This document shows positions 1 to 61,204 of a stretch of 64,000 nucleotides of DNA, piece by piece (position 1 is the first letter of the stretch; every line of letters begins with the position of its first letter). The notes beneath the pieces were generated by a model that searched no databases, was not told where the DNA came from, and worked only from the letters and a program-made list of their open reading frames with translations. The position numbers were made by a program, and so were the translations under genes. Origin of the DNA: Trissonchulus latispiculum (taxonomy: Eukaryota; Nematoda; Enoplea; Enoplida; Ironidae); assembly GCA_030248195.1 (NCBI GenBank), contig JASAND010006816.1, forward strand, positions 57,006 to 121,005, in the 5' to 3' direction.

Positions 1-3000
1 GGTTGAGGGTTAGGCGTCGGGGCCAGATGGTACATGGCCATAGGGTTGAAAACATGGCGTGACGGTCCAATACGGCCATTCGCCGTCAAATGGGTCAATG
101 CCTGCACAAAATGACTAAACATAGGCCACACTTGAGGGGGTATGGTTTCATAGATCGCTGGAGTCAATCCGATCTGATGCAGCACTTCTGCTGATGGCAT
201 CAATTGTAAGAGCGGTTGTTCTAAGCCGCTTGGTTGCTGGATCTGTTGAACCTCCATAGGAGCAGCTCCTTGGGGTGCGGCCATGGCTTGGGCCTGCAGA
301 CCCGAAGGTCCGGCGGTGGGTGCCGCCACCGTGACGGGGGCAGCTTGAATTCCTGGCGGAGCCAGAACCTGAGTTAGGCCTGGCGCTGCCGTCGCGGCTG
401 AAGCCTTGGCCCGCTCCTCTTGCTGCACTATCCGCACTGCTTCCATTATACTCGGGTCAACGTCCAGCAGATCCATCGGATCCTGGATATGTGGGAAGCA
501 CTTCATAAGTTCCCGGAGTTCCCGCTCCTCCTCAGATGAAACCTCCCGGTGTCGTTTGGGTGGTGTTGCGTCCGCTTCGCGGGCTTGTTGGGAGGTGGAG
601 GGCGTCACGCCCTCTAGCCGATCCTGTCGCTCTTGTTGTCTTAAATACTCATCCGGGATGGGTGGCATATATTCCTGATCCGGATGTGCCCACACCGGAC
701 CCGGTTGAGGCCGCGGTTGAGCTTGAGCTCTTCTATACATTTCTGTCGGATCTCTCCACGTTGGTAATGGCTTCGTACCGAACCGGCTTTCAGCAGTCAC
801 TGCTGGCTGGCTACGGGTTTTATACGCGTCGGACTGTGACCGGTCTCGCTGTTGCTGGCGAGATGTAGGTGGAGCGGACTGTTCGTAATAGCGCTTATTG
901 GTATACACCCGTTGCGGGGGTCGAGATCGCGGAGGAGAATCTGGTAATTTCAGAAATTCCGGTGAAGTCTGCCGCTGCCTGGAGTCACGTCGCGTGTCTC
1001 GTTGTCGACTAGTACTAGGTTGATCCAGTGGTGGTGGGCGAGGAGGTCCCCGCTGTCTTGACACTGGTGGCTTATGTGGAACAATTTGTACCTCCTTGTG
1101 CTTACCGTCGCGGTCAGGCACTACCAAAGCAGCCGAGGCTGGAGTTTCACCCTCCTCTGGGAAACCTTCACCGTCCGATGGAATATAGTCCTGAACCCTC
1201 CGGGCTCCCGCCGCATTCAGCTGTTCCACCAACTCCGCATTGGGTTGCAATTCCACCTGGTCTTGCGGTCTGTCGGGATCCCTAGCATGATATCTGCCAT
1301 CCTGCGAAACCCTCACCCGACGCCAGTCGATGGCCGGTAGGACACGAGGCTGGAAGCGCCATCTGGTCCATGCGCGCATAAAAACCAAAAATCGTTGATA
1401 GATAGCTTCCCGCAGCGGGTGGGCCACATTAATGTTTGGTCCCATATGAAAACTGAAAGACCATAAAGGCCGCTGCCTTGGTAGATCCTCATCAGGAACA
1501 TCATCCGTAGGTAGCAGGCGTTCATGAATGATCTGTTGGAATTGTTCCTGGTCTGAGGTTGGACGACCCTGAAGGGGTGTCATGTGCCGTACGCCCGCAT
1601 GAGGCCCATGACCTTTTCTTCGCTCGTGTTCCAATGCCGCTTCCACTTCTGGTCCATAGGCATTATGCAGTGTAGACAGCTGAGTCGCCAGTTCACTGTC
1701 TCGTGCATCCAATAACTCCCGAACAAGGCGCAGTATATGATAGGTGGCGTCCACATCAGCTAGTGCGTAGCGCACGTCCCCTTCATGAGGAACTACTGGG
1801 ATACCCTTAGTGCAACAGCGCTTCAACTTTGGGTTAGGAACAGAACACATACCTGCCATCCTTCGCAACCCAGCTCCTGTGCCATTGATAAACCCATAGC
1901 GGTCCCGCACATATGGGTCCGGTGGTCGCAAATCAGTCTGGTAATTCAGATCACGGTAGTGACTAGATCGTCGTAGATTCCACGCATGAATCCAATATTC
2001 CTGGACCTCGACCAGTCGGTGTGCCAGGCCCTGAAGGCCATAGGCCCGAGCCAACCGTAAGGCATCAGCTTTGATGTCCACTGAAGCCCAACGGGCTTGC
2101 AAGCTAGAGTCCGTTAGTAGCTCCAGCAGCTGGAGGAACGGTCCAAAATCCTTCAGCTGTGCCAAAATATATGCCACCATGATCACAAAGGTCACCGGTC
2201 GCCGGTACCCAGGGACTTGGCCTACAGGGCCCATGAACTGGAGCATGGTAATCGTTCCATCCTGTGGTACTGCAAACTGGATGTCATTACCCCCTTCTAC
2301 GTCGAAAGCCACCAAAGGGGCGTCACCTAAGAGGGTAATCAAGTCCGGTAAATGATAGAGGAAGCGACCCAGTGAGTCGATCACAAAGGTATTTTCGTCG
2401 TTGTTATCATGTCGAATCTCGGCGAAATTTGGCCGCGGAGCCGGCAATCCGGTCAGTTGTTCTGTCAACATAGCCCCCAAGGCTAAGGCGGCTGTTTCAT
2501 ACTCCTCCCCTAATGCCTCAACGCCGAACTGGCGATGGCGTAGTAGCGCATCCGTGTACACCTGCAAGTGGACCTCGAGTCGCTCGTAGTCCTCCCGACG
2601 AAACGGGTCCAGTCGGTCCAACTCTGTGGCTATAGGACGAAGGCGCGGGACTGGAGGGACCACACCTGCTTGAGCCGGTGGGGCCATATAGCCCCCTGCG
2701 ATGGCAGCCTCGGCCACCGCAGCAACTGCCTGATCAATATCCATACCTTCTTGCTGTTGTGGTTGTTGTTGGGCCCCTACTGGTGCCGCATCTCCCTGAA
2801 CCTCCTCCAATACCTGGATATCATCAGAGGCCGCCTCATCCTCTCCCTGAGCCGGCGGATTTTCATCTGAAAATAGATCTTCTGATTCTTTCTCCTCATC
2901 TGACACGTCCTCATAGTCGGCACCGGCCCGTGCTCTGGCGTCGCGCTCGAGCTGTGAGGAGGTTTCCTCCTTATCTGAAGTCTCCATCTGAGCTGGCGAC

Positions 3001-3680
3001 GCGGCTTGTTGCTGCCCTTCCTGTTGTAAGGCCGACGAGGCCGCGAGTCCTAAGAGGTTAAGCCCCTCAGGAACCGTCGCGGTTCTGTGCAAAGGACTGG
3101 GATTTGGCGCCGGATCTAGTAGATTCTGAATTGACCGGCTGGCACTGATCGCGGCCTGACTCGGGCCGGCCTGTGATTCGCTCACTGGAGGGGGTGGAGG
3201 GGTGGGCAAGGTAGGTTGATCTCCAGGGTCAGACAATACTGAGACTGGACTAGGCATGGCAGGAGTATCGGCCCGCTTCAGGAGGACCTTTATCTGTTGC
3301 GTATCCCCACTAGCGGCCCCCTGGTCGCCAGTGGGTACCTGTTGATCCGGTTCGCCACCAGCCATGCCAGTCGCTGGCAGGTCTGAGGCACGTGTGGTGG
3401 AAATTCCTAATATACCCGTGACATCAAAGTTCTGCTGTTGTTGGTCATCCCCAGACCCTGCGGTCGCCGCCGGTCCTTGACTCGGACCGGGCTGCTGTTC
3501 CATTTCCTCCTCAGGAGGTTTCTCCTCCTCAGGTCTGTCCATGAGAGTCACAATGTCCCAAAATCGCTGATTCGGGATTGGGTATTCGTCCAAATCGTTT
3601 AGGTCGCCGGGGTCTCTCGGGACAGGTGATTGTCTTTCCGGAAAGTCTTTCTGAACCCGAAATGAAAATTGATTGCCCAT
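1..3680 (-). CDS. Third ORF of the Gypsy element: DEDDy 3'-5' exonuclease-domain protein (C-terminus outside window)
   Basis: An uninterrupted frame runs from ATG at 3680 to the window edge, at least 1226 codons. Residues 1-400 are low complexity (Q, P, S, acidic). About 440-660 is an exonuclease-like fold: motif I AFDVEGGND gives D460 and E462; a beta/alpha stretch with TMLQFMG follows; motif II VDIKADALRLA gives D539; motif III is YALADVDATYHILRLV with Y638 and D642. This is the D-x-E / D / Y-x3-D pattern of DEDDy enzymes (RNase D, WRN exonuclease, EXD1/EXD2, MUT-7). Motifs II and III are about 99 residues apart, longer than in RNase D, suggesting an insertion. Residues beyond about 850 are Q/R/P-rich. 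The N-terminus MGNQFSF fits an N-myristoylation signal. No transmembrane segment or envelope feature was seen. Activity and substrate are unknown; a host-derived gene beside the element is the alternative. Confidence 0.75.
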   Translation of the reverse strand, partial: MGNQFSFRVQKDFPERQSPVPRDPGDLNDLDEYPIPNQRFWDIVTLMDRPEEEKPPEEEMEQQPGPSQGPAATAGSGDDQQQQNFDVTGILGISTTRASDLPATGMAGGEPDQQVPTGDQGAASGDTQQIKVLLKRADTPAMPSPVSVLSDPGDQPTLPTPPPPPVSESQAGPSQAAISASRSIQNLLDPAPNPSPLHRTATVPEGLNLLGLAASSALQQEGQQQAASPAQMETSDKEETSSQLERDARARAGADYEDVSDEEKESEDLFSDENPPAQGEDEAASDDIQVLEEVQGDAAPVGAQQQPQQQEGMDIDQAVAAVAEAAIAGGYMAPPAQAGVVPPVPRLRPIATELDRLDPFRREDYERLEVHLQVYTDALLRHRQFGVEALGEEYETAALALGAMLTEQLTGLPAPRPNFAEIRHDNNDENTFVIDSLGRFLYHLPDLITLLGDAPLVAFDVEGGNDIQFAVPQDGTITMLQFMGPVGQVPGYRRPVTFVIMVAYILAQLKDFGPFLQLLELLTDSSLQARWASVDIKADALRLARAYGLQGLAHRLVEVQEYWIHAWNLRRSSHYRDLNYQTDLRPPDPYVRDRYGFINGTGAGLRRMAGMCSVPNPKLKRCCTKGIPVVPHEGDVRYALADVDATYHILRLVRELLDARDSELATQLSTLHNAYGPEVEAALEHERRKGHGPHAGVRHMTPLQGRPTSDQEQFQQIIHERLLPTDDVPDEDLPRQRPLWSFSFHMGPNINVAHPLREAIYQRFLVFMRAWTRWRFQPRVLPAIDWRRVRVSQDGRYHARDPDRPQDQVELQPNAELVEQLNAAGARRVQDYIPSDGEGFPEEGETPASAALVVPDRDGKHKEVQIVPHKPPVSRQRGPPRPPPLDQPSTSRQRDTRRDSRQRQTSPEFLKLPDSPPRSRPPQRVYTNKRYYEQSAPPTSRQQQRDRSQSDAYKTRSQPAVTAESRFGTKPLPTWRDPTEMYRRAQAQPRPQPGPVWAHPDQEYMPPIPDEYLRQQERQDRLEGVTPSTSQQAREADATPPKRHREVSSEEERELRELMKCFPHIQDPMDLLDVDPSIMEAVRIVQQEERAKASAATAAPGLTQVLAPPGIQAAPVTVAAPTAGPSGLQAQAMAAPQGAAPMEVQQIQQPSGLEQPLLQLMPSAEVLHQIGLTPAIYETIPPQVWPMFSHFVQALTHLTANGRIGPSRHVFNPMAMYHLAPTPNPQ

Positions 3681-3705
3681 GCACTGGGGCAATCAGATGA
3701 CTCAA
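3681..3705 (-). promoter_or_regulatory. Possible splice acceptor upstream of ORF3
   Basis: On the minus strand a pyrimidine-containing stretch ends in TTGCCCCAG, with the AG at 3684-3685, four bases before the ORF3 ATG. ORF3 is more than 1.1 kb downstream of the pol stop, so a spliced subgenomic RNA, as for retroviral env, is a reasonable way to express it. No donor was identified. This is inference from position only. Confidence 0.35.
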
Positions 3706-4802
3706 AAAGGGAGCAAGTAGCTCTAGTAAAGTCACAGCAAGCAGTTAGTTAGCAATGAGTTGTCCAATAATGAATGAGGCGATCCAAGTCGCTGACTACC
3801 AAATTGTTCTTCTGGCAGAATAAGGCACTGATCGTAATATAAGAGATCAAATCGCACACACAAATTAAATCTGAAATTATAAAAGCAGCACACGGTTAAC
3901 ATGTGGCACAGCAAGCGTTGGCCTATACTAATGACCCTATCTTCAGTGGACCAGGCAGATGAACACAACAAGGTAGCCTTATTGTGACCATTCGACGACC
4001 AAATTCTGCAAGAAAAATCCCCATTCAATAGCTTCCAGCTGACAGGCTCATATGCCCGTCCACTGAAAGTCCCCAACCAAGCAATCACGCAGGCACTAGA
4101 ATCTAAAATAAGCCTCAGAAAAAGTGCAAAAACTAACAGATAGTGAAAGCATGATAGGTGTGATAGGAAAAAGTAGAAAAAAGAAAGGAAAAGAAAGACT
4201 ACACACACAAGAGAGGGTGACCTACCTATAGTTAGCCTACGTAAAGGGAGAAAGACACTACACACACACACACAGGTTAAAAGCATACATACACACACGC
4301 ACCCAGTGTATACACTAATGCATACACTATATAGACAGAAAGATAGGATAGGGCCCCCTTAGCAATTTACAACGAAAGACAATGCCTTAAAGTTAAAAGA
4401 AAACCCCCATAGGTAAATTTGAAAGTGAAATTAAGAGTAAAAGAATCCCCCTGTTAGGGTAAATAATAGGAAGAAAAGAAAAACTTATGGCCAAATTTTA
4501 CAGCCATAAGTATGAGAAATTAGAGAAAACTAGATAGAAAAAAGTAAACCCCATTTTACACCGAAACTAATTAATCGTAAAGGAGGCCCCAAAATAAATT
4601 TAAACCCTACCCTATTCTAAAGGGTTATATAACACGAATGGTGCCAACACTAAATGTTAGAGTTAAAACCCTAGGTAATACGAAAATAGGACGTCCCTAA
4701 AAGAAAAATGAGCACGCAATATTATACAAGTGCAAGGGCCCTTGCGTTACACAAGGCCTATTACAGAAACTAGTGCTGCAAATTATGTACACTGTAGGTT
4801 GC
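3706..4802 (-). other. AT-rich spacer between pol and ORF3, no gene recognised
   Basis: The plus strand is A-rich and has a CA/CACA microsatellite near 4200-4310. A 188-residue minus-strand frame (4298-3732) is cysteine/phenylalanine-rich, spans the microsatellite and resembles nothing I know, so I did not call it. I found no polypurine tract next to a TG...CA repeat unit and no match to the candidate LTR at 14.2-14.7 kb. Confidence 0.5.
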
Positions 4803-7800
4803 CTACAGTGTCACAACTGGCAATTTAATTGGGGCATCCTGAAAAGGCTTCAATCTATTGATGTTAACCACCACCGGGTCACTCAACCCGTTAGTGCGAG
4901 CAATCCGATAATTCGTTACAGAAATCTTATCCAATACCCGATAAGGTCCCTCGTATTTAGGCCGTAACTTCTTACTCAAACCTGTAGGTACATTCTTGTT
5001 CTCAATATTGAGCATAACCAGGGTACCTGGCTTATACTCAACCGGTGAGGCTTTCAAATCGTACCTTTCCTTGTTAACCAATGCTGCCTCCTGTAAGGCT
5101 TCATGCGCCAACCGCCAGGCTTCATTCATTCGAGCCAGTAGCTGGCTCCGTGCGTCGCTATAATTCTGGGTGGTACCTTCCTCACCAGGAAGCTGAAAGA
5201 AATTATCCAGTGGATATCGGTAATCTCTACCTGTCATCAAGAAGTGAGGTGTCTCCTTCGTGGCACTGTGAATCGTTGCTCTGTAAATGGACAATCCCCA
5301 CGGTAAATAATCGTCCCAATCGGACTGAAAACAATTCACGTACTTGGCTACCAGGCTACGTATTGTCCGGTTGAAGCGTTCCACTACACCGTTCGTTTGA
5401 GGGTGGTATGCAGTAGTTCTGAGCCGCTCAGAGCCGCTAGCATCCACTAAAGCTCGTAAGAAGACGGACATAAAATTCGGTCCCTGATCTGTCAAAACAC
5501 GTGCAGGAACACCCCATCGGGCTACAAAACCATTAAAATACCAGTACGCAGTAGTTTCCGCCCGCTCATTGGGCATAGCAAAAGCCTCCGCGTATCGCGT
5601 GAGGTAGTCCACTATACACAATACACATGTGTTACCTCTGTTGGTCTCCTTCTGTGTGAAGTGCATCACGTCCATAGCCACGACATCTAACGGTCGGCGT
5701 ACCACCACCGTGTTCTGCATTGTGGCCTGATATCTACGTGGCCCTTGATTAAATTTTGCACAGGGCTTACACTGAGCGATGAAGTCCTCTAGATCTTGAG
5801 ACATGCGAGGCCACCAATACTTGGTTTCCAGACTGGCCATAGCATTTTGGTGGGCCCGGTGACCGCCCGTCGTGAAATCGGAGTGAACCTCCTGCAAGAG
5901 CTGCTCTCGCTGGACCTTAGGCACTACCACAGTAGGGAAGGGTAGCCCTCTACGCTCTGCATGTTTATTCAAGTGCCAACGATATAACACCCCGTCTCTA
6001 ATAAAAAAGGTAGAGCGTAACTTCTTTACCTCTTGTGCTTCTTGTCGGTTAGTTGGCAGCCGTTTCTGTTCCAAGAAATCCAATAAAACCGCAAATTCCT
6101 CTTCGTCGCGAAGTTCTCGTTTCCAGGTAAGCAGGGTAGGAGGCGCTGGAAGTGCCGCCGTCAAGGCGCACACTTCCGGTGGATACATAGCCGCTGTTGC
6201 CTCATGTTCGCTATCTTCAGGCTCATCAATTGGATCTAATCTGGACAAACAATCAGGGCCCACGTTCTCACGCCCTGGCCGATATTCCACCGTAAAGTCA
6301 AATTCTAACATACTAAGAGCAAATTTAGCAAGCTTACCTTGGCCTAAAGCCTTGATATTATTCAATAGATCCCTGACTGCTTGATGGTCGGTTCGGAGAA
6401 CAAACTGCTTACAGGACAGATAATGCCTGAATTTCTGACAGCCCCATAAGGCTGCAAACGCTTCCATCTCCGTTGCGGAGTAACCCTTTTCACCCTGGGT
6501 CAGGGTTCTACTGGCATAGGCAACTGGTCGTTCCCGTAGCACCCGTGGTCCATTCGGTTTATCGGCGCTACGCGGCACCGAAAATTGTTGCTCCAAAATA
6601 GCACCAAAACCCTGCTTACTGGCATCAGATGACACATAAAAAGTTTTGTCAAAATCAGGAAAGGCTAAAACTGGAGCTTGAGTCAAGTGCCGTTTCAGCT
6701 CCTCGAACGCGTTTTGACAGGCTTCAGACCAGACAAATGGCACCCCTTTCTTCAATAAGTCCGTTAGGGGGGCGGCCACTTTAGCATAGTTAAGCACAAA
6801 TCGTCGGTAGTACCCGCACATTCCTAGAAAAGATCGAATACCCTTCACATCCTTTGGTGGCTTAAGCTGAGATACAGCCTTAACCTTATCCGGGTCCACA
6901 CTAATGCCATTCCGGCCCACATAGTGACCCAGGAAGGGCACTGATTCACGAGCAAAACAACATTTCTTAAGTTTAATACGCAGTCCATTGTCGCGCAGAC
7001 GAGTCAGGGTCGACCTGATCATCGCTAAGTGAGCATCTTGATCTGTAGAGGGAATCAAGACATCGTCAATATATACAGGCAAATCCGTCAAGACCTTTTC
7101 CATTAGACGCTGAAACGTTGCGGGAGCGTTACACAACCCGAACGGCATGACATTCATATGGAAGAGGCCCATATGGGATACGAAGGCTGTTTTCTCCCTG
7201 TGTTCTGGGTAGACCTCAACCTGCCAGTACCCAGCCGCTAGATCGATAGTCGAGAAAATCACTGCCCCTTGGAGTTGATCCAATATTTCGTCGATTTTGG
7301 GCAACGGGTAATTATCCTTCTTCGTAATTTTGTTTAGCCGTCGATAGTCAATGACTAAACGTGTGGTCCCGTCTTTCTTGCCGACCAAGATGCATGGAGA
7401 AGACCAAGGACTAGTAGAGGGGGAGCAGACCCCTTCATCCAGCATTGCCCGTATATGCTTCTCAATTTCCGCTTTATCTTTAGGATTATACCGATAAGAT
7501 CTACCCTTAACTGGCCCTTCCTTACCAGTATCAATCACATGTTGGTCCACTTTGGTCCGACCCGGGTTGCCCGGTCTGGCAACCACGTCATAAAATTCGA
7601 CCAATATATCCCTCAGTTTCGCTTTACCTTCATCATCAAGAAACATAGAATCAAAATCTACGTTCTCATCAATAAATTGTTGACGTTCCTCTAAGGATGG
7701 CATAGGTTGGGAGGTCATTTCGTCTGCGGAATAGTGCATATCATTAAAGGCCTGGAGGCCTTTTTCAGTCAATGCCGGAGGTTCCTCGTAACCCCAATTC

Positions 7801-10652
7801 TGGTCAGCCTCAGCGACACACACCGTGGGGTCGACCCACCTTGGAACTGGTATCTCGTTACCCACGCTATTAACCATAGGGACCGTGTCGCCTGGGTGAT
7901 ACGGCTCCAATTGCTCAACCTCCTCGAGGGCGTGACGTAACTCTTTCTCGTTTAGGCGGGTGGCTGGATGGGTCGCCCAACTAGCCAGGTGAGGGTGCGC
8001 TTGTGCAAAGTTAACCCCTAACTCAGCAGCATACCGAAACCCTTGACGTTCCGTGACCGTAGTGACCGGCTCCGCCTGGCCGAGGGGTAGCCCCTTTGGC
8101 AATTGGGCCGTTCGGTCCAGGGGATTATAGACCTTGATGTAATTGACCTGGGAGGATACTTCCAAGACCCCAGGCACTGGGTAAACTTCATAATCTTCCA
8201 GGACTTCTTCTGATGGTTCAAACACGACTGCCTGGTTGATGGCTGGCTTTACAGCACCACCAAGCCAACAACGAACCGGGACCATAACTTCCGATCTAGG
8301 AGGGAGTTTGCATGTTTCCCGCATACAATAATATACCGTACAGGACACCGCTATACTGAAACGATTAGCTAAGGCCTGCAGGTCGCCTGGGGTCAGCAAG
8401 GGTACCTTCTTCCTGTCGCATAAAAGAAGGTGTTGGTGGGGAAAAATCACCCAATTATGGTCTGCCTGAAAGTCATAGCCAATAATAAAGTCTTGTTGTA
8501 GACTATTTGTCACGTTAAAAGTGTATTCATACCGAACGCCATGCAATTTGAAGGCAATCTTGGTGGTACCCAATATAGCTAGGCTCCGGTCGTCGGCAGC
8601 CGTAGCCACCTCCGTAGCTTTCGTCTCGTCCAGATGTAGACGTTTGTTGCTATTAAGTTGATCGAAGAAATGTTTGGACATCAGGCAGATGTTGGCCCCT
8701 GTATCCAGCAGGGCTAAGGTCTTGATGCCGCGGACCTCCACAATCACATACGGACTTTTCTTCAAGGCAATATGAGTACACTGCGATACGAAAAAGGGGG
8801 ACGTTCCATCCAGGACAGAGAGGACCGCTCTGTTCAAGTGCTTAGTCTGCGCTGTGGGTTGCCCACTATCATCCTCGACGTCGCTAGCTTCTACATCTAA
8901 GTTAAACTCGACTCGTTGAGCTGGGCTAAGGGCAGCCCGCAGTTGTTGTTCCAAGTCCCAGATTCCGTACTTGTCCCCTAGATCAGTAGGAGTCGCTTCC
9001 TGCTGATCTACGATGGCCGTATCGCGTTCGGCTAAGTTTCCAGACGGGGCGGTCGCTCCTGAGTTTGTTACGACCTCGTCCTGATGTAGTACTGGAGCGT
9101 CATCCCTATTAGTGGAAGTCTCTTCCTGCACCACAGGTGCCGGTTCCTCGTCTATAGGTGTGCTATCCAGCACAATGATCTCATTCGGGTCGTTTAGGCG
9201 AATTCCCCGTCTGCCCTTGCGGGGTTGCGGCGGGTCCTCCGACCAGATAGGCTGGTCTGGTTCACGGAGGGTTCCCTGCTGTTGAAGTTCTAAGGTCCGC
9301 TCATAATCCTTCTGAACAAACTCGGCCAATAGTTGTTCAAAGCTCTGGGTAGACTGACGTACCTGGTCCGTCACGGACATTACGTTAACAGCCAATTGTT
9401 GAATCTGTTCGCCAATAGACTGGGCGACCACTTGCGCTTGTTCGACAGCTTGATTGACAGTTGCCCAGCCTTGACGAATGTCTGCATACTCCGGAGTTTC
9501 CAATAGGGCAAATCTATTCCGGGTAGATACACCGGATTGTACCGGTGTTTTCGGATGTTTCATCCCTTTTTCTACCGGTTCCCACTCACCCTGAGTGTCC
9601 CTTCGCAATTTCAAAGGTGTTACTGGAGTAGCTCCGGACCTATGAACTTCAACAGGTGCTAGTGTGAGACCCGAAGTACCGGATTCGTCATCCGATACGT
9701 CCGTTTCCGTGAGTTCTCGTCGGCTAGGATTGTTCGCTGCTGACCAAGGTTTCAAAGAACTCGGCCGCTTGGGTGGGGACGCCCCAGTAATCACAATACT
9801 GGGCGGTTTCTTCGTAGGGATAGGAGTTTCCGGCACCACCTGGGTAGTGACAGCCAGTTCTGACGTTGGGGTTTCCCCAGTGCTTACTGCTGAAAGCCCA
9901 GAACCCGAGGGTTGATTTTCCCCAGGGCTTTTAGCTTGCTCCCCATTTACAGGGGCCTGGTTTTCCCCAGGGCTTTTGCGATAAGCCCCGGCTCCCGATT
10001 GATTCTCTGTCCGTGTTGGTGTCCATTGTTGGAGAGGCCGGATAACCTCGATAGGGTCCGTCTGTACCTCCTTCGAGGTAGATGTTTTCCTTTGCCTCCG
10101 AGCTGTGCCCGTGCCAGGTTGCCTAGCACGAGTCTGTGCCGCCATGGCCGCGGAATTCTCCTGCCACTTCATGGCCTTGCGGACTGTATTAAGCATATTC
10201 CATTCCGTACCGGGTGCTTGTTTCCACCGCCTATTATACGGGACTGGGCGTTGAGAGGCCCCTCCGTCGCCGAAGGGTTTCACTTCCTTACGCCAGCGGT
10301 TCCAGTATTTATATGGCCGAAGGTTGCCTTCGCCATCATAGACCACGTCTCCTCCGTCCGGGAAACCTCCATTTGCGAGGACCACTTCCTCTTCTGGGAA
10401 CCATTCAGCCCGTCTACGTACCTGTTTGCAAGTCTTACACGGACATTTCCACGGGTTTACATCGTAATTCGTATCTTTATTCAGATATAAACACACGGGT
10501 TCTTGTTTCGGTGAGGGAAGGGGGTCGCCTCCTTCACCCTCACTTTCCGAGTCACTACTCCAGAGACCACCATGATTCCAATAAGGTTCGTTATCAGGCT
10601 TGTTAGAAAAATTAGAATTAGTAACAACAAACGCTTGGACCGCACAGACCAT
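4803..10652 (-). CDS. pol: Gypsy-type Pol polyprotein (protease, reverse transcriptase, RNase H, integrase)
   Basis: A 1949-codon open frame. Residues 1-600 are a long low-complexity extension with a small Cys motif (CPCKTCKQ). The aspartic protease is near 650 (LLDTGANICL). RT spans about 1060-1240, with the YIDDVL catalytic box near 1195. RNase H is near 1340 (SSDASKQGFGAIL). An HHCC zinc motif lies around 1590 (H-S-D-F ... CKPCAKF). The integrase core includes VLTDQGPNFMS and YHPQTNGVVERFNRTI. A GPY/F-type region (KYEGPYRVL) ends the protein; I see no chromodomain. The frame is open upstream of the ATG and lies -1 relative to gag, so the product is most likely a Gag-Pol fusion made by frameshifting and the ATG at 10652 may not be used. 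The chain makes cDNA from the element RNA and integrates it. Confidence 0.95.
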   Translation of the reverse strand: MVCAVQAFVVTNSNFSNKPDNEPYWNHGGLWSSDSESEGEGGDPLPSPKQEPVCLYLNKDTNYDVNPWKCPCKTCKQVRRRAEWFPEEEVVLANGGFPDGGDVVYDGEGNLRPYKYWNRWRKEVKPFGDGGASQRPVPYNRRWKQAPGTEWNMLNTVRKAMKWQENSAAMAAQTRARQPGTGTARRQRKTSTSKEVQTDPIEVIRPLQQWTPTRTENQSGAGAYRKSPGENQAPVNGEQAKSPGENQPSGSGLSAVSTGETPTSELAVTTQVVPETPIPTKKPPSIVITGASPPKRPSSLKPWSAANNPSRRELTETDVSDDESGTSGLTLAPVEVHRSGATPVTPLKLRRDTQGEWEPVEKGMKHPKTPVQSGVSTRNRFALLETPEYADIRQGWATVNQAVEQAQVVAQSIGEQIQQLAVNVMSVTDQVRQSTQSFEQLLAEFVQKDYERTLELQQQGTLREPDQPIWSEDPPQPRKGRRGIRLNDPNEIIVLDSTPIDEEPAPVVQEETSTNRDDAPVLHQDEVVTNSGATAPSGNLAERDTAIVDQQEATPTDLGDKYGIWDLEQQLRAALSPAQRVEFNLDVEASDVEDDSGQPTAQTKHLNRAVLSVLDGTSPFFVSQCTHIALKKSPYVIVEVRGIKTLALLDTGANICLMSKHFFDQLNSNKRLHLDETKATEVATAADDRSLAILGTTKIAFKLHGVRYEYTFNVTNSLQQDFIIGYDFQADHNWVIFPHQHLLLCDRKKVPLLTPGDLQALANRFSIAVSCTVYYCMRETCKLPPRSEVMVPVRCWLGGAVKPAINQAVVFEPSEEVLEDYEVYPVPGVLEVSSQVNYIKVYNPLDRTAQLPKGLPLGQAEPVTTVTERQGFRYAAELGVNFAQAHPHLASWATHPATRLNEKELRHALEEVEQLEPYHPGDTVPMVNSVGNEIPVPRWVDPTVCVAEADQNWGYEEPPALTEKGLQAFNDMHYSADEMTSQPMPSLEERQQFIDENVDFDSMFLDDEGKAKLRDILVEFYDVVARPGNPGRTKVDQHVIDTGKEGPVKGRSYRYNPKDKAEIEKHIRAMLDEGVCSPSTSPWSSPCILVGKKDGTTRLVIDYRRLNKITKKDNYPLPKIDEILDQLQGAVIFSTIDLAAGYWQVEVYPEHREKTAFVSHMGLFHMNVMPFGLCNAPATFQRLMEKVLTDLPVYIDDVLIPSTDQDAHLAMIRSTLTRLRDNGLRIKLKKCCFARESVPFLGHYVGRNGISVDPDKVKAVSQLKPPKDVKGIRSFLGMCGYYRRFVLNYAKVAAPLTDLLKKGVPFVWSEACQNAFEELKRHLTQAPVLAFPDFDKTFYVSSDASKQGFGAILEQQFSVPRSADKPNGPRVLRERPVAYASRTLTQGEKGYSATEMEAFAALWGCQKFRHYLSCKQFVLRTDHQAVRDLLNNIKALGQGKLAKFALSMLEFDFTVEYRPGRENVGPDCLSRLDPIDEPEDSEHEATAAMYPPEVCALTAALPAPPTLLTWKRELRDEEEFAVLLDFLEQKRLPTNRQEAQEVKKLRSTFFIRDGVLYRWHLNKHAERRGLPFPTVVVPKVQREQLLQEVHSDFTTGGHRAHQNAMASLETKYWWPRMSQDLEDFIAQCKPCAKFNQGPRRYQATMQNTVVVRRPLDVVAMDVMHFTQKETNRGNTCVLCIVDYLTRYAEAFAMPNERAETTAYWYFNGFVARWGVPARVLTDQGPNFMSVFLRALVDASGSERLRTTAYHPQTNGVVERFNRTIRSLVAKYVNCFQSDWDDYLPWGLSIYRATIHSATKETPHFLMTGRDYRYPLDNFFQLPGEEGTTQNYSDARSQLLARMNEAWRLAHEALQEAALVNKERYDLKASPVEYKPGTLVMLNIENKNVPTGLSKKLRPKYEGPYRVLDKISVTNYRIARTNGLSDPVVVNINRLKPFQDAPIKLPVVTL

Positions 10653-10674
10653 TTCACCAGACGGCTTTGTCGGT

Positions 10675-10724
10675 GCGGGACACGGGGCCAGGTCTACTGC
10701 CCGTGCCCCGCATTCTCGTTTCCC
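10675..10724 (-). promoter_or_regulatory. -1 programmed ribosomal frameshift signal at the gag/pol junction
   Basis: The minus strand carries GGGAAAC at 10724-10718, in the gag phase G_GGA_AAC, i.e. the X_XXY_YYZ slippery form. A 6-nt spacer (GAGAAT, 10717-10712) is followed by a 12-bp stem: GCGGGGCACGGG (10711-10700) pairs with CCCGTGTCCCGC (10686-10675) with one G-U wobble and a 13-nt loop. The gag stop (10696-10694) lies in the loop, and the -1 frame runs open into pol. Confidence 0.85.
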
Positions 10725-13249
10725 GTTTCCGGGAAACCTTCATACCGACGTGGGCCTACATAACCCCGGCTAATAGAGCGGGGTCTAACCGGCTGTTGTC
10801 GTTGATTCCTTTGGTCCTGCTGGCCTTGTTGCCGTTGCGGCTCCTGCGGGTTACGCTGGTCCTGATTCCTTTGCCCTTGGTTCCGTTGGTTCTGGTCGTA
10901 GCGACTCCGGGCAGGGGGGTCACCCTCCTGACCTCTGTCCCGGTACTGTCGATGGACATTACCCCTAACCTGCTGTTGGCCCTGATCATTCTGACTCAGG
11001 TATTGCAGGTAGTCTGGGCACTGTTGTTGCCTATGGCCAACCAGACCGCATTGCCAACACCTGCCCATAGGCGCGCGGGGCGGTAGTCGTTCGTCGTTCC
11101 GTTGATAACCCTGGTTACGATTCTGGTTCTGAGTCTGGCTTTGCCCTTGAGATCGCTGTTGGTCCTGCTGGGGTCGCCCCTGAGTGGCATTATAGCCTCG
11201 TGGTCCCTGACTCTGGGCACTAAAGACCATAACGGCCTGTTCTTTATCCAGTTCTACCTGTACTGACTCCACAATATGGAGAGCCCGCGTGATCAAGTCG
11301 TTCTCCCGCACATGTGGCCAGAATTGAATGTCGGCCAATGGGGCCGCCATTCTAGAGCGTAGATCCGCTTTCAAGCCTCTTTTGAATTGGGCCACTACCT
11401 TCTTTTCCCGATCAAAACCAGGTTCAAACGGAAACGCTTGCACCGCTAGCAAGCGCAGCGCTGCCATATAGTCATGTGGCTTTTCACGCGGTTCCTGCAT
11501 CCGGCTATAAAATTGCTCTGCGTATTGCTCCGTAGTAACAGGCAAGGGTTCGTACAGCTGTCGGATCCTAGTCACTAGGTCCTCGAAAGTGTCCGGTGGA
11601 CAGGGGGTCATAGATTCTTTGACCTTGTCATCAAGCAAGGTCCACAGGATTCTATACTTCATGCCGGCTGGCACGTCATGAACCTTTACTGTGGTTTCGA
11701 AATTCGCCAACCAGCTAGTAAACTTGATATTACTCTGTGACCCTTGAAAGGGTTTAACCCCCTTAAAGCCCTTCAGATATTCACCCAGATGTTTAAAACT
11801 CTCATATGAAGAGGGTTCTCGCTGCTCTGAAAGACGTGGTCGTTGCGACCGCTCTCGTCGAGAGGCAGGGTAATCCCGGTCCCGCGAATAGCGCCTAGGA
11901 CTAGGCGTTCTACGCACGGGTGACGGGGAGTGGTAGCCCCGTGATGGGGTCCTAGACCGCCGTATACCATCTCTCCGCCGGCGGGGTTGCGCCACCGGCG
12001 AACCTCTCACCTGGTCATCAGAGGAATCCAGATCTACAATTGGTGGGGCCCGCTGTGGGCTCCCTCTACGGCTACGGACCGGTTCCGGGCTCGGCTGCCG
12101 AGCTGGCTGAGACTGCCCCATTTGAAACGGGGGAGCCCCTGCATCTGGATCCATGCTGGGGTTGGGCCACATACGCAACAGTTCCATGCAAACTCGAGGA
12201 AAATTCTGCTCGAGTGCCTCCCATGTTTCCCGCGGAATTTCTGCTATCCAAGCTGTAAGCAAGCCTCTAATCACACTATATTCCTGTTCGGTCAGGCCTC
12301 TCACTCGGAAAAGGCCAGCGGTATCCGGCGTTTGGGGCCGGTGCCGGACCGGTACGGTGGGTTGATCCCGTAGCGGGACCACCCACGCATCCATGGGTCC
12401 GCGCACTTTCGGTTTCCTCTCCGGTTCTTGTTCTGAATCACCGCTATCCGGTCGTTGACTACTGCTAGCCCGTTTCGGGCGCTTTGACCTTGTGAGGTCA
12501 ATATGAGCAGTTGAGCGGAACCGTGGGCCTGACACTGCTGGTTCACTAGGGCCTGGTAGCCCCGATTGTCGCGGGGGTCCACCCCCCTCTTGCCGTCGAG
12601 GCTTAGAGCGGGTAAACTGAGGGAATGGTCGCGTTCCTGGTTGTCTGCGTATAATGGAGCTATCCGACCCCAATCTTGGTCGTTGCTGAAATAAATTCAT
12701 TTCCAGCTGGTTAACAAAAGCTCGTAGGTCCGAGACATCAGACATCCCTGGCACCGGTTCTGCCAGCGGTTCCCTATCGGGCTCTCTGTTCCGGAGAGTA
12801 GAATCGATCCGAGCCAGTTTGAGCCGAAGAAACTCCAATTGATCCCTAATGCTTGCCTGTTCGTCCCATTCTTCCTCTATAACCTCACCCTGATCAGTAG
12901 GTGACAAAAACTCATCGGTCTTCTGTGAGGCCTCGTCCTCTTGTTGGTCGTCGTGACCCTGATCCGTGGCTTCTTCGAATAATTCCTCCCTTTTGGAGGC
13001 CTTATTTTTGGCCGAGTCTGATCGCAAGTATGGTCTACTAAGCGTAGCGCTTGTAGAAGCAGGGCCCGCCGAGGCCTGGCTGGATGATGATTGAGTAGAA
13101 GAATTTTTACTCAAGGTCGATGGGGGAAACAGTCGTCCAAAACCATCTGGATTCAAGGGCCGATTATCCATTGCGTCACTTGAAGTGGCCGTATCAGCCG
13201 GCTTGGTCGAAGCCTTAGACGTTTTCACAGGGGAATGTTGAACAGACAT
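10694..13249 (-). CDS. gag: Gag polyprotein of the Gypsy element
   Basis: About 851 codons from the chosen ATG at 13249 (MSVQHSP); an in-frame ATG at 13285 adds twelve hydrophobic residues unlike the rest. The first 450 residues are charged, S/P/R-rich and probably disordered. A Retrotrans_gag/capsid-like region follows at about 500-650 (KFTSWLANFETTVKV, ILWTLLDDKVKESM, QLYEPLPVTTEQYAEQFYSRM). One CCHC zinc knuckle (CWQCGLVGHRQQQC) lies near residue 735. The tail is Q/N/R-rich, consistent with nucleocapsid RNA binding. It would form the particle and package the element RNA. The final codons contain the frameshift heptamer. Confidence 0.9.
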   Translation of the reverse strand: MSVQHSPVKTSKASTKPADTATSSDAMDNRPLNPDGFGRLFPPSTLSKNSSTQSSSSQASAGPASTSATLSRPYLRSDSAKNKASKREELFEEATDQGHDDQQEDEASQKTDEFLSPTDQGEVIEEEWDEQASIRDQLEFLRLKLARIDSTLRNREPDREPLAEPVPGMSDVSDLRAFVNQLEMNLFQQRPRLGSDSSIIRRQPGTRPFPQFTRSKPRRQEGGGPPRQSGLPGPSEPAVSGPRFRSTAHIDLTRSKRPKRASSSQRPDSGDSEQEPERKPKVRGPMDAWVVPLRDQPTVPVRHRPQTPDTAGLFRVRGLTEQEYSVIRGLLTAWIAEIPRETWEALEQNFPRVCMELLRMWPNPSMDPDAGAPPFQMGQSQPARQPSPEPVRSRRGSPQRAPPIVDLDSSDDQVRGSPVAQPRRRRDGIRRSRTPSRGYHSPSPVRRTPSPRRYSRDRDYPASRRERSQRPRLSEQREPSSYESFKHLGEYLKGFKGVKPFQGSQSNIKFTSWLANFETTVKVHDVPAGMKYRILWTLLDDKVKESMTPCPPDTFEDLVTRIRQLYEPLPVTTEQYAEQFYSRMQEPREKPHDYMAALRLLAVQAFPFEPGFDREKKVVAQFKRGLKADLRSRMAAPLADIQFWPHVRENDLITRALHIVESVQVELDKEQAVMVFSAQSQGPRGYNATQGRPQQDQQRSQGQSQTQNQNRNQGYQRNDERLPPRAPMGRCWQCGLVGHRQQQCPDYLQYLSQNDQGQQQVRGNVHRQYRDRGQEGDPPARSRYDQNQRNQGQRNQDQRNPQEPQRQQGQQDQRNQRQQPVRPRSISRGYVGPRRYEGFPETGNENAGHGQ

Positions 13250-14229
13250 TGAAGAATAAAAGAGGATACACAAACAAAAGATCAAAAAGTAGGTACGTAT
13301 GGCAAATCTTGAATGATAATAACAGCACGAGTTAAAAACAAGCTACTTTAAAAGAACAAATTAATAAACAAGTATAAGGAGATCAAATTGGAGAAATAAT
13401 AAAGGAAAGCAATTAATAATTACTAGGCAAAAGACAAAAGATATAAAAGTTAAAACGTAGACAAAAACTAAGACAAAGACAAAGAAAAGGTCGAAGACTG
13501 GCAGCCTAATGTAAAGTTGGAAGTGTAGGGGCAACCAAACTTTACGGGTGGAAACTGTGCGCGTATGGAAACGACGAACCTGGAGGAGACTTATGTTCCA
13601 GTCGACCTGGGCAGATCTCGCCAAGAAATTAAGTAAGCCTAACAAACTACCAGACGAGTGGACTAAAGGGATAAATGAATTGCCTTACTACTGGACTACT
13701 AAAGAAACTTTGATTAAATTAAATACACGCTCAGTAATTAATTAGCCTACCTGGATTTGGAAATAACTCAGAGTCTTACCTACCGAGTATACAGTTCTAA
13801 TAAGACCTAAATAAACACACCCTAACGGTTCAGCTACTGGGACCCACATTTAAAAAAATAATAGACAAAGGGAGAGACTCCCGAAAAGTACACAGCAAAG
13901 TAAATTTTGACATAGAAGCATTCATCAATAAAGTTACAAAACAGAGAAAATTCAGACAAAATATACATTTCAGAAAATAGTTACTTTCAAAAGGACATAG
14001 CAAATTTCGACACATTTATAAAACAAGTCTATTATAACACAAATTCAATCCGAAATTATTTAAACCCTTCAAAAAATACCTACTATCTCAAATATTTCCC
14101 TAAGCCGTCACGGCTGACTAAATAACCTATTTGAAAATGACATAGATAAAACCCTTTTCTAAAATACGCAACCATATTAGATACTAATTAAAAAGGGAAT
14201 AAAACTCAGAAACACACGCTAATAAATTT
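13250..14229 (-). other. AT-rich untranslated leader of the Gypsy element
   Basis: There is no convincing ORF. On the minus strand this T-rich stretch separates gag from the candidate LTR and should hold the primer-binding site and packaging signals. I could not match a primer-binding site to a specific tRNA. Confidence 0.5.
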
Positions 14230-14699
14230 TGGTCGACCCACGAGGTCGCCTTGGAGTCTATGTGTAAAAAAAAAAACGAATCAATAACTTACGGCTACAG
14301 AAAGGGTCCAAAATGAAAGGCAGAAAAAACACGTATTAGGCAACTCAGGCCAAAAAAACACGGCCGCACGCTAGAGAATTTAGACAAGACTGACTGGTTT
14401 TTAAAGTGAAGGCTGAGAGAGATGCCTAGTGAATTTTGATTGGCTGAATTTGAGACCCTCTTGCAGACCCGACTATGCGCTTCCACAAGTCTAGCTCAGC
14501 AGCGCCACCTAGTCGCTAAGTGGGCTGAATAAAACATAGCGCATTTCAACATAAGAAAACAAACACTTTTAGACTAATTTCAACCCAAATTTACACAACA
14601 CATATTTCTCATTAAAAACATCACTCTTACTAAAATTTCACACTAAAACAAACTCACTAAAATTACACATAACTCACACATTACATCACACACATTACA
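14230..14699 (-). repeat. Candidate 5' LTR of the Gypsy element
   Basis: Read on the minus strand it starts TGTAATGTG at 14699. It contains a CCAAT-like box (CAGCCAATCAAAATT, near 14450-14436), a TATA-like CTTTAAAAACC at about 14409-14399 and an initiator-like CAGTCAGTC just after. Its 3' edge is uncertain. There is no second copy in the window to prove it. Confidence 0.35.
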
Positions 14700-17370: not shown

Positions 17371-18101
17371 CAAGAGTCCATAATTTATTCCTTTATATTA
17401 TAGAAGAAGAGTAAGCCACTAGAGGGCTTCTCTTCTTGGTATTGCGTAACGGTGCTCCGACCACAATACGCGAATGTTCCCCCGTTTGGTGGGGGGGTCG
17501 ACCAGCATACCCCCTCCCCGTTTGGAGGGGGGGGGGGTAGGCAAAAGGGGTCCCCGTTTGGTGGGGGGGTATGCAAAAGGGGTCCCCGTTTGGTGGGGGA
17601 GTAGGCAGAATGGGGTCCCCGTTTGGGGGGGGTCGCCAAGTCAGGCTAAGATTGGACGAATCTGATTGGCTGTTGGCGACCCCCCCCCCAAACGGGGACC
17701 TCTTTTGTCTACCCCCCCACCAAACGGGGACCTCTCTTTGCTACCCCCCCACCAAACGGGGACCTCTTTTGCCTACCCCCCCCCACCAAATGGGGACCCA
17801 TTTTCAAATAGAACAAAAACTACCGTAATCCTCTGCTCTACCCCCCCACCAAACTGGGAGGGGGTCTCTGCATTCTGATTGGCTGTTGGCTACCCCCCCC
17901 CACCAAACGGGGACCTCTTTTCTGCTACCCCCCCCCCCACCAAACGGAGGGGGGGTATGCTTTGTCGAAGAGAGCTACCCCCCCCACCAAACGGGGGAAC
18001 ATTCGCGTATTGTGGTCGGAGCACCGTTACGCAATGCCAAGAAGAGAAGCCCTCTAGTGGCTTACTCTTCTTCTTATATATAGTGCAATTATGCACTCTT
18101 G
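17371..18101. mobile_element. Foldback DNA element with CAAGAG ends and 7-bp target duplication
   Basis: The ends are CAAGAGTCCATAATT and AATTATGCACTCTTG, flanked by the direct repeat GTGAAAC (17364-17370 and 18102-18108). The inverted arms of about 120 bp include CCACTAGAGGGCTTCTCTTC and GTAACGGTGCTCCGACCACA. The interior is a run of CCCCCCACCAAACGGGG units in both orientations. It encodes no protein, so it is non-autonomous; its transposase family is not identified. Confidence 0.85.
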
Positions 18102-18108
18102 GTGAAAC

Positions 18109-18540
18109 CTTTTGCTCACCTCCCTCCCACCAAACGGGGGAACCTTTTGCCTACCTTCCCACCAAACGGGGATCCATTTTGAAAATGAGTAGAAACCACT
18201 GTAATCCTCTGCACTACGCTCCTCCCACCCACCAAACGGGGTACCCTTTCGCCTATGTACCTTCCCACCAAACGGAGATCCATTTTGAAAATAAATACAA
18301 ACTAACTTACCATAATCCTCTGCTCTACCCTCCACCTCAAACGGAAACGGGGTCTCTGCAATCTGGGCTGTCGGCTACCCTCCCCTACCAAACGGGGAGG
18401 AGCATATTTGTCACCCCTCCATCAAATGGGGGAACATACGCGTATTGTGGTCGGAGCACCGTTACGCAGTGCACTGAAGAGGAGTCCTCTAGTGGCTTAT
18501 ATACTCGTCTTCCCATGCACAGTGCAATTATGCACTATTG
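18109..18540. mobile_element. Truncated copy of the same foldback family
   Basis: It carries the same ACCAAACGGGG interior units and right arm (CGTATTGTGGTCGGAGCACC, CCTCTAGTGGCTTA) and ends in AATTATGCACTATTG at 18540. The left half is missing; the intact copy at 17371-18101 lies directly against it. Confidence 0.75.
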
Positions 18541-18547
18541 ATAATAA

Positions 18548-18823
18548 CAAGAGAATAGGCACACTCCATGTTATCAGAGCAAAAACTATGCTCTGCTCGC
18601 TAACGGCCTACCCCCCCCCCCGTAAATTAGACCCATCACTTCAAAGAATTTTGTGCGCTGTTATGTTTGTGTTCCGAGGCCCGAAGCAGTCGGAGGAGGG
18701 TCACTAGGGTCTGATGTGCGGGCGGGGGGGGGGGGGTGGTTGGGCCGTTAGCGAGCAGAGCATAGTTTTCGCTTTAATAAGAGAGAGCTTACCTTAGCAT
18801 ACTCTTATCATTATGTACTCTTG
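18548..18823. mobile_element. Short related TIR element (TATGCTCTGC/GCAGAGCATA subfamily)
   Basis: It starts CAAGAGAATAGG and ends ATTATGTACTCTTG, flanked by ATAATAA (18541-18547) and GTAATAA (18824-18830), 6 of 7 identical. The arms share ACTATGCTCTGCTCGCTAACG, inverted on the right at about 18749-18771. The centre is C-rich then G-rich. Another TAAGAG end begins at 18835, so elements are stacked end to end. Confidence 0.7.
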
Positions 18824-22098: not shown

Positions 22099-22426
22099 CA
22101 AGAGTTCGTAATTCCCTTATATAGGAAGAAGAATAGTAAACCACTAGAAGGCCCCTCTTTTTGGCATTGAGTAACGGTGCTCCGACCATAATGTGCGAAT
22201 ATTCCCCCGTTTGAGGTGGAGGAAAGGAGCGACAAAAGTATCCCCTCCCCTTTTGGTGGGGGCTGCAGGGGGCAGTCAACAGCCAATCAGATTGCAGAGA
22301 CCCCCGTTCACGTTTTGGGGGGGGGGTAGCGCAAAGGCTTACGGCGGTTTCGTTTAGGTTAGTTCCAAAAAGGGTGCACGTGAAGGATGTGGGTCCGCTT
22401 GGGGGGGGCTGGTTCCCAAAAGCCAA
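22099..22426. mobile_element. Left-end fragment of the CAAGAG foldback family
   Basis: It begins CAAGAGTTCGTAATT and carries the diverged arm (CCACTAGAAGGCCCC, AACGGTGCTCCGACCATAAT) and C/G-rich interior. No right end was found; it stops near GCCAATCAGAATT at about 22420-22432. Confidence 0.65.
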
Positions 22427-22724
22427 TCAGAATTAGCCAATTCCAGCCTGTTTGGCCGAACAAAAAACTGAATCTGAATCTTAACAAAAACGACTGTATA
22501 GTACTTTCAGGACTAAAATAATTTTGAGACTGATTTACAAATTAAAATAAATTGACAATTCTCAGACTAAAATACTAAGTACATAGAAATACGTCGATAA
22601 AAAGTTGCTATAGACTTCTTTGCCGGATAATCCAGTTATTGCTCTGACGATACGCTGAATTGAGACTTTATTCTGACGATATTATCCGTGTGATGACATT
22701 AGTGTTCCACCAGGCATGCTCTCT

Positions 22725-31613: not shown

Positions 31614-31634
31614 ATAGATAATAAAAACCCATAC

Positions 31635-61140: not shown

Positions 61141-61204
61141 CTAGGAAACAGGAAAAAATAGGAAATAATAATGAAGCAGTAGGAAAAAAATCGTCAAACA
61201 CTGT

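What the first reader, a model, noticed from the sequence alone, without database searches (positions are those of the whole stretch)
1..3680. A Gypsy retrotransposon apparently carries its own DEDDy 3'-5' exonuclease
The ORF after pol is open for at least 1226 codons and holds an RNase D/EXD1-like domain with D460, E462, D539, Y638 and D642 all in place. Third ORFs in Gypsy elements are usually env-like; I know of no described Gypsy element with a DEDDy exonuclease. Nematodes use DEDDy nucleases such as MUT-7 in small-RNA silencing of transposons, so a captured copy could act in counter-defence, RNA processing or replication. Membership in the element is inferred from strand, order, composition and the lack of an LTR between pol and ORF3.
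Basis: partly seen in the sequence, partly recalled or inferred. Interest (0 to 1): 0.9.

Follow-up and report, generated by a model that had tools for sequence, protein, structure and literature searches.

The report
Giant Gypsy retrotransposon with enzyme-like ORF3
A 21-kb jumping gene in what is probably an invertebrate genome carries, besides its usual genes, a huge extra protein that looks like an RNA/DNA-trimming enzyme joined to an ADP-ribose-removing enzyme; some copies have lost it, yet where kept it is strongly preserved.

Summary
Confirmed: on the minus strand a Ty3/Gypsy gag (13342-10694) and pol (10739-4803) are followed, without an intervening LTR, by a long ORF3 (ATG 3680) that leaves the window and ends after 2246 codons. 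The 3' LTR lies beyond it, so gag-pol-ORF3 is one LTR-bounded unit of about 21 kb. ORF3 is multi-copy, in two families (about 50% identical), its window part under strong purifying selection (dN/dS 0.07 and 0.11).

The DEDDy reading is supported, not proven: D460, E462, D539, Y638 and D642 are invariant in 28 of 28 sequences compared; Pfam's 3'-5' exonuclease family is a sub-threshold hit (E 0.17 for one cut of the window's domain, none for a longer cut; 8 of 17 members, best 0.023). PDB searches and a single-sequence fold gave nothing.

New: the C-terminal part holds a NADAR-like domain (E 0.00033, below curated cut-off), and the protein starts MGN(Q/G)F(S/A)F. Eight of eight ORF3-less loci read are internal deletions of more than one kind.

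The combination was not seen in my searches. New variant of a known kind.

The parts
13510..14699 (-). 5' LTR of the element (starts TGTAATG at 14685 or 14699, ends TTTACA at 13510)
   Evidence: 85.9% identical over 1205 aligned columns to L117:3573-4748 (= C4639:50578-51753), the 3' LTR beyond ORF3
10694..13342 (-). gag frame, 882 codons stop to stop, first ATG of the MSVQHS reading at 13249, CCHC knuckle
   Evidence: open frame; weak zinc-knuckle matches E 0.011 and 0.25
4803..10739 (-). pol: protease, RT, RNase H, integrase; 1978 codons; overlaps gag by 46 nt in another frame
   Evidence: Pfam RVT_1 2.4e-30, RT_RNaseH_2 1.4e-28, Integrase_H2C2 1.8e-14, rve 8.8e-8, Asp_protease_2 5.1e-5
3693..4802 (-). 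1.1-kb gap between pol and ORF3; no LTR in it
   Evidence: best match to window 13.25-64 kb is 23 nt; found between pol and ORF3 in other copies
1..3680 (-). ORF3 from its ATG to the window edge; continues to C4639:53960 (L117:6955), 2246 codons stop to stop; begins MGNQFSF
1623..2375 (-). DEDDy 3'-5' exonuclease-like domain (stop-to-stop residues 440-690; D460 2303-2301, E462 2297-2295, D539 2066-2064, Y638 1769-1767, D642 1757-1755 in ATG numbering)
   Evidence: PF01612 E 0.17 for a 266-residue cut, none at E<=1 for a 321-residue cut; 8 of 17 members, best 0.023; catalytic residues invariant 28 of 28; dN/dS 0.04

Best explanation
This is an LTR-bounded Ty3/Gypsy retrotransposon of about 21 kb whose third gene encodes a ~2240-residue accessory protein with no recognised envelope domain. 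The protein starts with a myristoylation-like MGN(Q/G)F(S/A)F, contains an RNase D/EXD1-like DEDDy domain with all five motif residues, and near its C-terminus a NADAR-like domain with an E and a K spaced as in NADAR active sites. Shown: position inside the LTRs, copy number, two families, purifying selection on the window part, loss by internal deletion of more than one kind. Inferred: that the two domains fold and act as their namesakes. Most likely mechanism (inference, about 0.4 for the role): a helper made from a separate, perhaps spliced message that trims 3' ends of the element's RNA or cDNA (DEDDy) and strips ADP-ribose put on its nucleic acids or proteins by the host (NADAR). Because copies with an intact pol but no ORF3 exist, it can be dispensed with in cis and perhaps shared in trans.
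For: Open ORF3 after pol; pol domains; LTR pair flanking gag-pol-ORF3 with a PPT-like GGGGAGA before the 3' LTR. The 3' end of pol precedes ORF3 on the same strand in 9 of 17 family-1 loci examined (L100-L116; in the other 8 no pol match was seen, the flank beginning within the gap or ORF3 or the match stopping inside them). Of 6 further copies, 3' LTR found in 6 and 5' LTR in 5, one of them partial. Family 2 has gag, pol, ORF3 in order in C14517. Catalytic residues invariant in 28 of 28. PF01612 in 8 of 17 members. NADAR E 0.00033 in family 1 (one locus) and 0.0039-0.0077 in family 2 (two loci); E+7K aligned with YbiA, the same spacing as the E and K tested in PMC11543638 (passages). dN/dS 0.07 and 0.11. 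MGN start in 23 of 23 other copies printed.
Against: The window part of ORF3 has no Pfam hit at E<=1, no NCBIfam hit and only chance PDB hits (best E 0.43, DSCAM); no homologue scored among 3953 and 4919 candidates of two protein-database searches. A 321-residue cut of the window's own domain and L107 have no PF01612 hit at E<=1. A two-family profile finds no exonuclease in the PDB. With a bacterial RNase D profile two of 326 window ORFs scored above the domain; hhalign against that family gave wrong registers, and with a broader DEDDy set a weak local match (2 of 150 shuffles as good) and no global one (103 of 150). The single-sequence fold is uninformative (pLDDT 40). NADAR is below Pfam's cut-off (21.4 against 35.1 bits) and no NADAR chain appeared in the PDB searches. 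ORF3-less copies with intact pol show ORF3 is not needed in cis. No expression or enzyme data.
Confidence: 0.65

Rival explanations
1. The DEDD domain has the fold but works as an RNA-binding module, like EXD1 and Maelstrom, rather than as a nuclease.
For: EXD1 and Maelstrom are described as catalytically inactive DEDD derivatives that keep RNA binding (PMC5408684 discussion passage). The histidine common before the exo II aspartate in RNase D (A1) is a tryptophan or glycine-flanked position here (alignment).
Against: All four acidic residues and the tyrosine are invariant in 28 of 28 sequences, and of the three parts compared the domain has the lowest dN/dS in both families; a dead domain would be expected to lose some of them.
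Confidence: 0.2
2. ORF3 is an unrelated structural or envelope-like protein and the DEDDy and NADAR resemblances are chance.
For: No significant hits for the window part of ORF3 or its two-family domain profile in the PDB; long Pro/Gln/Arg-rich stretches; third ORFs in Gypsy elements are often env-like (general knowledge).
Against: PF01612 is the commonest family among members (8 of 17; the next, HTH_IclR, 2 of 17) and matches at the expected exo III place; NADAR is found in both families; invariant motif residues. I ran no transmembrane prediction.
Confidence: 0.15
3. ORF3 is a host gene next to an unrelated Gypsy copy, or an assembly join.
For: Within-copy LTR identity is only 0.84-0.94 in four of five other pairs and 0.86 in the window's copy, and no target-site duplication is obvious.
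Against: The same order recurs at many places with the same 1.1-kb gap, the 3' LTR follows ORF3 in 6 of 6 further copies, ORF3-less copies keep its last 65-82 codons, and one pair of LTRs is 0.997 identical.
Confidence: 0.02

Closest known systems
Juno and Vesta LTR retrotransposons of bdelloid rotifers with DEDDy ORF3 (Rodriguez, Kenefick and Arkhipova 2017, PMC5408684)
   Same: LTR retrotransposon, gag-pol followed by an ORF3 with RNase D-like DEDDy motifs; ORF3 present in some families and absent in others; same functional guesses (3'-end processing, mut-7-like role)
   Different: There the homology was found by HHpred and the motif reads DEED; here it reads DEDD. No NADAR domain is mentioned in the passages I saw.
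Gypsy elements of Ectocarpus with a YbiA-family NADAR domain, and oyster Tx1 LINE ORF1 (PMC12477816, passages)
   Same: NADAR-type domain captured by a retrotransposon, including Gypsy
   Different: There it sits at the N-terminus of Pol or in LINE ORF1; here it is near the C-terminus of a separate ORF3 and accompanied by a DEDDy-like domain
Dada DNA transposons with a DEDDy exonuclease domain (PMC3706591, passages)
   Same: DEDDy DnaQ-like domain carried by a mobile element; proposed to process 3' ends
   Different: DNA transposon; domain inside the transposase
Invertebrate RNA viruses with NADAR, including nidoviruses (PMC9503650, passages)
   Same: NADAR proposed to counter host ADP-ribosylation; nidoviruses also have an exonuclease (ExoN; abstract start of PMC7968707 in the listing)
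   Different: RNA viruses; nidoviral ExoN is not of the RNase D-like DEDDy type (recalled)

Membership tests
Ty3/Gypsy LTR retrotransposon | pol in the order protease, RT, RNase H, integrase | tested here: met
Ty3/Gypsy LTR retrotransposon | LTRs on both sides of gag, pol and ORF3 | tested here: met
Ty3/Gypsy LTR retrotransposon | target-site duplication | tested here: inconclusive
   none obvious by eye in the flanks printed; LTR ends of some copies not exactly placed
DEDDy 3'-5' exonuclease (RNase D/EXD type) | D-x-E (exo I), D (exo II), Y-x3-D (exo III) in order | tested here: met
   invariant in 28 of 28
DEDDy 3'-5' exonuclease (RNase D/EXD type) | profile match to DNA_pol_A_exo1 above curated cut-off | tested here: not met
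   best printed 14.8 bits against 23.6; E 0.023 best of 17 members; 12.1 bits for the window's domain
DEDDy 3'-5' exonuclease (RNase D/EXD type) | RNase H-like fold | tested here: inconclusive
   single-sequence model pLDDT 40, pTM 0.22; no fold search run on it
DEDDy 3'-5' exonuclease (RNase D/EXD type) | metal-dependent 3'-5' nuclease activity | not testable with these tools
   -
NADAR (PF08719) | profile match above curated cut-off | tested here: not met
   significant by E-value (0.00033; 0.0039-0.0077) but 21.4 bits against 35.1
NADAR (PF08719) | active-site E and K seven residues apart | tested here: met
   E59 and K66 invariant in 3 of 3, aligned to YbiA SEHYFQAQK; E43/K50 and E88/K95 named in PMC11543638; the correspondence rests on spacing and alignment

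The most novel reading that the evidence does not exclude
A retrotransposon ORF3 that joins a 3'-5' exonuclease with an ADP-ribose eraser in one membrane-targeted (myristoylated) protein, acting as a counter-defence factor against host small-RNA silencing and host ADP-ribosylation; a retroelement counterpart of the macrodomain or NADAR erasers of RNA viruses, made by some copies and used in trans by ORF3-deleted ones.
Probability: 0.25. Interest if true: 0.85.

Novelty: new variant of a known kind. Interest (0 to 1): 0.6.

Why it matters
Enzymes captured as third genes by LTR retrotransposons are rarely described and their use is unknown. Here one genome holds copies with and without the gene, two diverged families that both keep it under strong purifying selection, and a second candidate enzyme domain linked to ADP-ribosylation. 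That makes the old question of what a DEDDy ORF3 does for a retrotransposon directly testable, and suggests that ADP-ribose removal may be a retroelement trait as well as a viral one.

Tried and rejected
Host gene or intervening LTR: rejected. Protein-database searches with the domain found nothing, nor did viral contigs, phages, PHROGs (only a tail protein at E 0.23) or Rfam on the window. A bacterial RNase D profile was built to test the fold; it gave the domain 3.3 bits at exo III, third of 2329 sequences, behind two other window ORFs and equalled by 1 of 2000 shuffles. The same family's profile A1 recovers EXD1 only at E 0.03, so its failure on ORF3 is weak evidence. Idea that ORF3-less copies are retrocopies of a spliced RNA: not supported, the junctions differ among copies. 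Idea that the stops listed break ORF3 in several copies: partly rejected; in L099, L101, L103, L106, L108 and L114 a TAG lies just 5' of the ATG. L106 has a further stop inside the stretch; the second TAG of L114 was not placed.
Rows dropped: L112, L115, L116 (partial) from the 28; two rows with stops; L102 and L106 (family 1) and L122 and L128 (family 2) not used for dN/dS; L097-L099 left out by an error in my id list; one search failed for the same error and was rerun.
Full report
Observation. On the minus strand of the window a gag frame (13342-10694), a pol frame (10739-4803) and, after 1.1 kb, a third frame from 3692 to the window edge are open.

Is ORF3 part of the element? The gap 3693-4802 has no match longer than 34 aligned columns to anything between 13.25 and 64 kb; the best is 23 nt at 91% (E 0.004), and one search lists one repeat pair there in 1-40 kb, 33 nt at 76%. 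The window lies in a 734-Mb genome at C4639:57006-121005. The next 10 kb to the left (L117) hold the rest of ORF3, open down to C4639:53960, and then, at C4639:50578-51753, a 1.2-kb sequence 86% identical to window 13510-14687. The pair starts TGTAATG and ends TTTACA, and the one beyond ORF3 is preceded by GGGGAGA, a likely polypurine tract. These are the LTRs; the unit between and including them is about 21.1 kb.

Other copies. ORF3 has 46 matching pieces in the genome. Twelve family-1 places, the window's included, cover at least residues 1-1190 of the 1230 searched at 92-100% identity; eleven places form family 2 (51-53%), seven of them with an open frame of 2178 codons. Counts are lower bounds, as the tool says. 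In 9 of 17 family-1 loci examined the 3' end of pol precedes ORF3 on the same strand at about the same distance; in the other 8 no pol match was seen, the flank beginning within the gap or ORF3 or the match stopping inside them. LTR pieces of six further copies were fetched: the 3' LTR was found in 6 of 6 and the 5' LTR in 5 of 6, one partial. In family 2, three flanks were fetched: C14517 shows gag, pol and ORF3 in order; C2649 and C1941 have shortened pol.

Copies without ORF3. Of the 24 pol copies scored by the genome search, all 96-100% identical and 22 of 24 without a stop, 5 lie beside an ORF3 match (C4639, C19404, C4656, C4137, C18861). Downstream DNA of 8 loci of the other 19 was read: in 8 of 8 the gap is joined directly to the last 65-82 codons of ORF3 (in two pieces in L151, L153 and L154) and the region after it. 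One of these loci lies between two facing pol copies, and the second of them shows only the first 450 nt of the gap. Aligned junctions fall into at least three types; two of them cannot be nested in each other, since each keeps sequence that the other lacks. On a tree of the gap the ORF3-less copies do not form one clade (20 sequences, FastTree supports 0.80-0.96 at the separating nodes), although L147-L149 share a junction. So ORF3 was probably lost at least twice; since its tail remains, the long form is the older one (inference). ORF3 is not required in cis.

Selection. Over the part in the window, mean pairwise dN/dS is 0.07 in family 1 (45 pairs of 10 of 12 copies) and 0.11 in family 2 (36 pairs of 9 of 11 copies); for the exonuclease-like part it is 0.04 and 0.08. 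The domain is 61% identical between families, against 46-51% in the parts on either side.

The exonuclease-like domain. D460, E462, D539, Y638 and D642 are invariant in 28 of 28 sequences. Pfam's DNA_pol_A_exo1 is the only family hit by a 266-residue cut of the window's domain (E 0.17, 12.1 bits, profile 134-165, the exo III part); a 321-residue cut has no hit at E<=1. Among 17 members of both families it is found in 8 with a best E of 0.023, HTH_IclR in 2; singly, L128 has 14.8 bits over profile 118-170, L119 13.1, L107 none (cut-off 23.6). So for family 1 the match rests alone among the results I can tell apart. A bacterial RNase D profile gave 3.3 bits at exo III, below two of 326 window ORFs and equalled by 1 of 2000 shuffles. 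A broader DEDDy profile scored the window's domain 4.0 bits (2 of 3000 shuffles as good; no alignment printed) and L119 6.1 bits (3 of 3000) at exo III; hhalign placed exo I correctly, D-x-E on D-x-E, with 2 of 150 column shuffles as good. Against: the window part of ORF3 has no Pfam or NCBIfam hit and only chance PDB hits; a two-family profile finds no exonuclease chain; hhalign with bacterial RNase D misregisters; global alignment is no better than shuffles (103 of 150); the single-sequence model is unusable. I put the DEDDy fold at about 0.75.

The NADAR-like domain. The C-terminal 1015 residues, outside the window, match NADAR (PF08719, E 0.0051), E 0.00033 when trimmed; two family-2 loci match too (E 0.0039-0.0077). 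All are below the curated cut-off. An E and a K seven residues apart are kept in 3 of 3 sequences and align with E. coli YbiA; PMC11543638 (passages) names and mutates an E and a K with that spacing in other NADARs (E88/K95, E43/K50); the mapping is mine. PDB searches gave no hit for the 1015 residues and for the trimmed profile only chance hits to ribonuclease I (E 0.56 and 1.4); hhalign with YbiA alone, though in register, was weak (probability 5.5). About 0.85. ORF3-deleted copies lack both domains.

N-terminus. ORF3 begins MGN(Q/G)F(S/A)F in 23 of 23 other copies printed, which fits an N-myristoylation signal (pattern recalled, not computed).

Host. Not identified. A cox1-like fragment (C17523) reads with the invertebrate mitochondrial code except for a few stops; by eye and from memory it looks nematode-like, which I did not test. 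Among the 120 relatives listed of 6356 matched, pol residues 1000-1490 are only 36-49% identical.

Known before. PMC5408684 (abstract and passages) describes DEDDy ORF3s in Juno and Vesta LTR retrotransposons and in Athena elements, says the invariant residues are intact with DEDD changed to DEED, proposes 3'-end processing, and mentions mut-7. PMC12477816 (passages) describes NADAR in Ectocarpus Gypsy pol and oyster Tx1 ORF1. PMC6338049 (passages) calls a DnaQ-like exonuclease a well-known accessory domain of LTR transposons. Eight searches touching one or both domains in retroelements listed no element with both; several lists were capped (for example 15 of 104, 15 of 3376, 8 of 2173 and 8 of 44 papers), and the library lacks most subscription papers, so this is weak evidence of absence.

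Mechanism. Shown: architecture, conservation, selection, loss. Inferred: two enzymes. The role I find most likely is a helper that trims 3' ends and removes host ADP-ribose marks; PMC9503650 (passages) argues for removal of host ADP-ribosylation by NADAR in eukaryotic RNA viruses. Loss of ORF3 in copies with intact pol fits a factor that works in trans or matters only under host attack.

Noticed in passing
window 13510-14699 and L117:3573-4748; LTR pairs of C18861, C4656, C20409, C4137, C15560: 5' and 3' LTRs of one copy differ by 0.3 to 16% although the window copy's gag, pol and ORF3 are open; in the window's copy the difference is concentrated in the middle of the LTR. Unexplained (recombination, conversion or assembly).
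   Followed up: partly
window 4790-4810: Perfect 9-bp palindrome (CACTGTAGG CAA CCTACAGTG) that overlaps the pol stop codon.
   Followed up: no
window 10694-10739: Gag and pol frames overlap by 46 nt; the geometry fits a -1 frameshift.
   Followed up: no
window 29457-31700 (-): A second gag-like frame of 747 codons with a CCHC knuckle (by eye).
   Followed up: no
window 60951-63524 (+): Broken LINE-like element, endonuclease and RT in pieces (by eye).
   Followed up: no
window 17387-18620 and 22120-22430: Dense direct and inverted repeats around a CCCCCCACCAAACGGGG unit, a possible palindromic mobile element or MITE cluster.
   Followed up: no
window 23266-23718 (-): Collagen-like Gly-X-Y exon (by eye).
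   Followed up: no
G000:C11216:747-8965: Two ORF3 copies in direct orientation 0.94 kb apart (L102, L098), a tandem of part of the element or an assembly effect.
   Followed up: no
G000:C15796:3396-18970: Two pol copies tail to tail with only 3.7 kb between them.
   Followed up: partly
G000:C17523:28493-29676: cox1-like fragment with TGA and TAA codons, a NUMT or a poorly assembled mitochondrial piece.
   Followed up: partly
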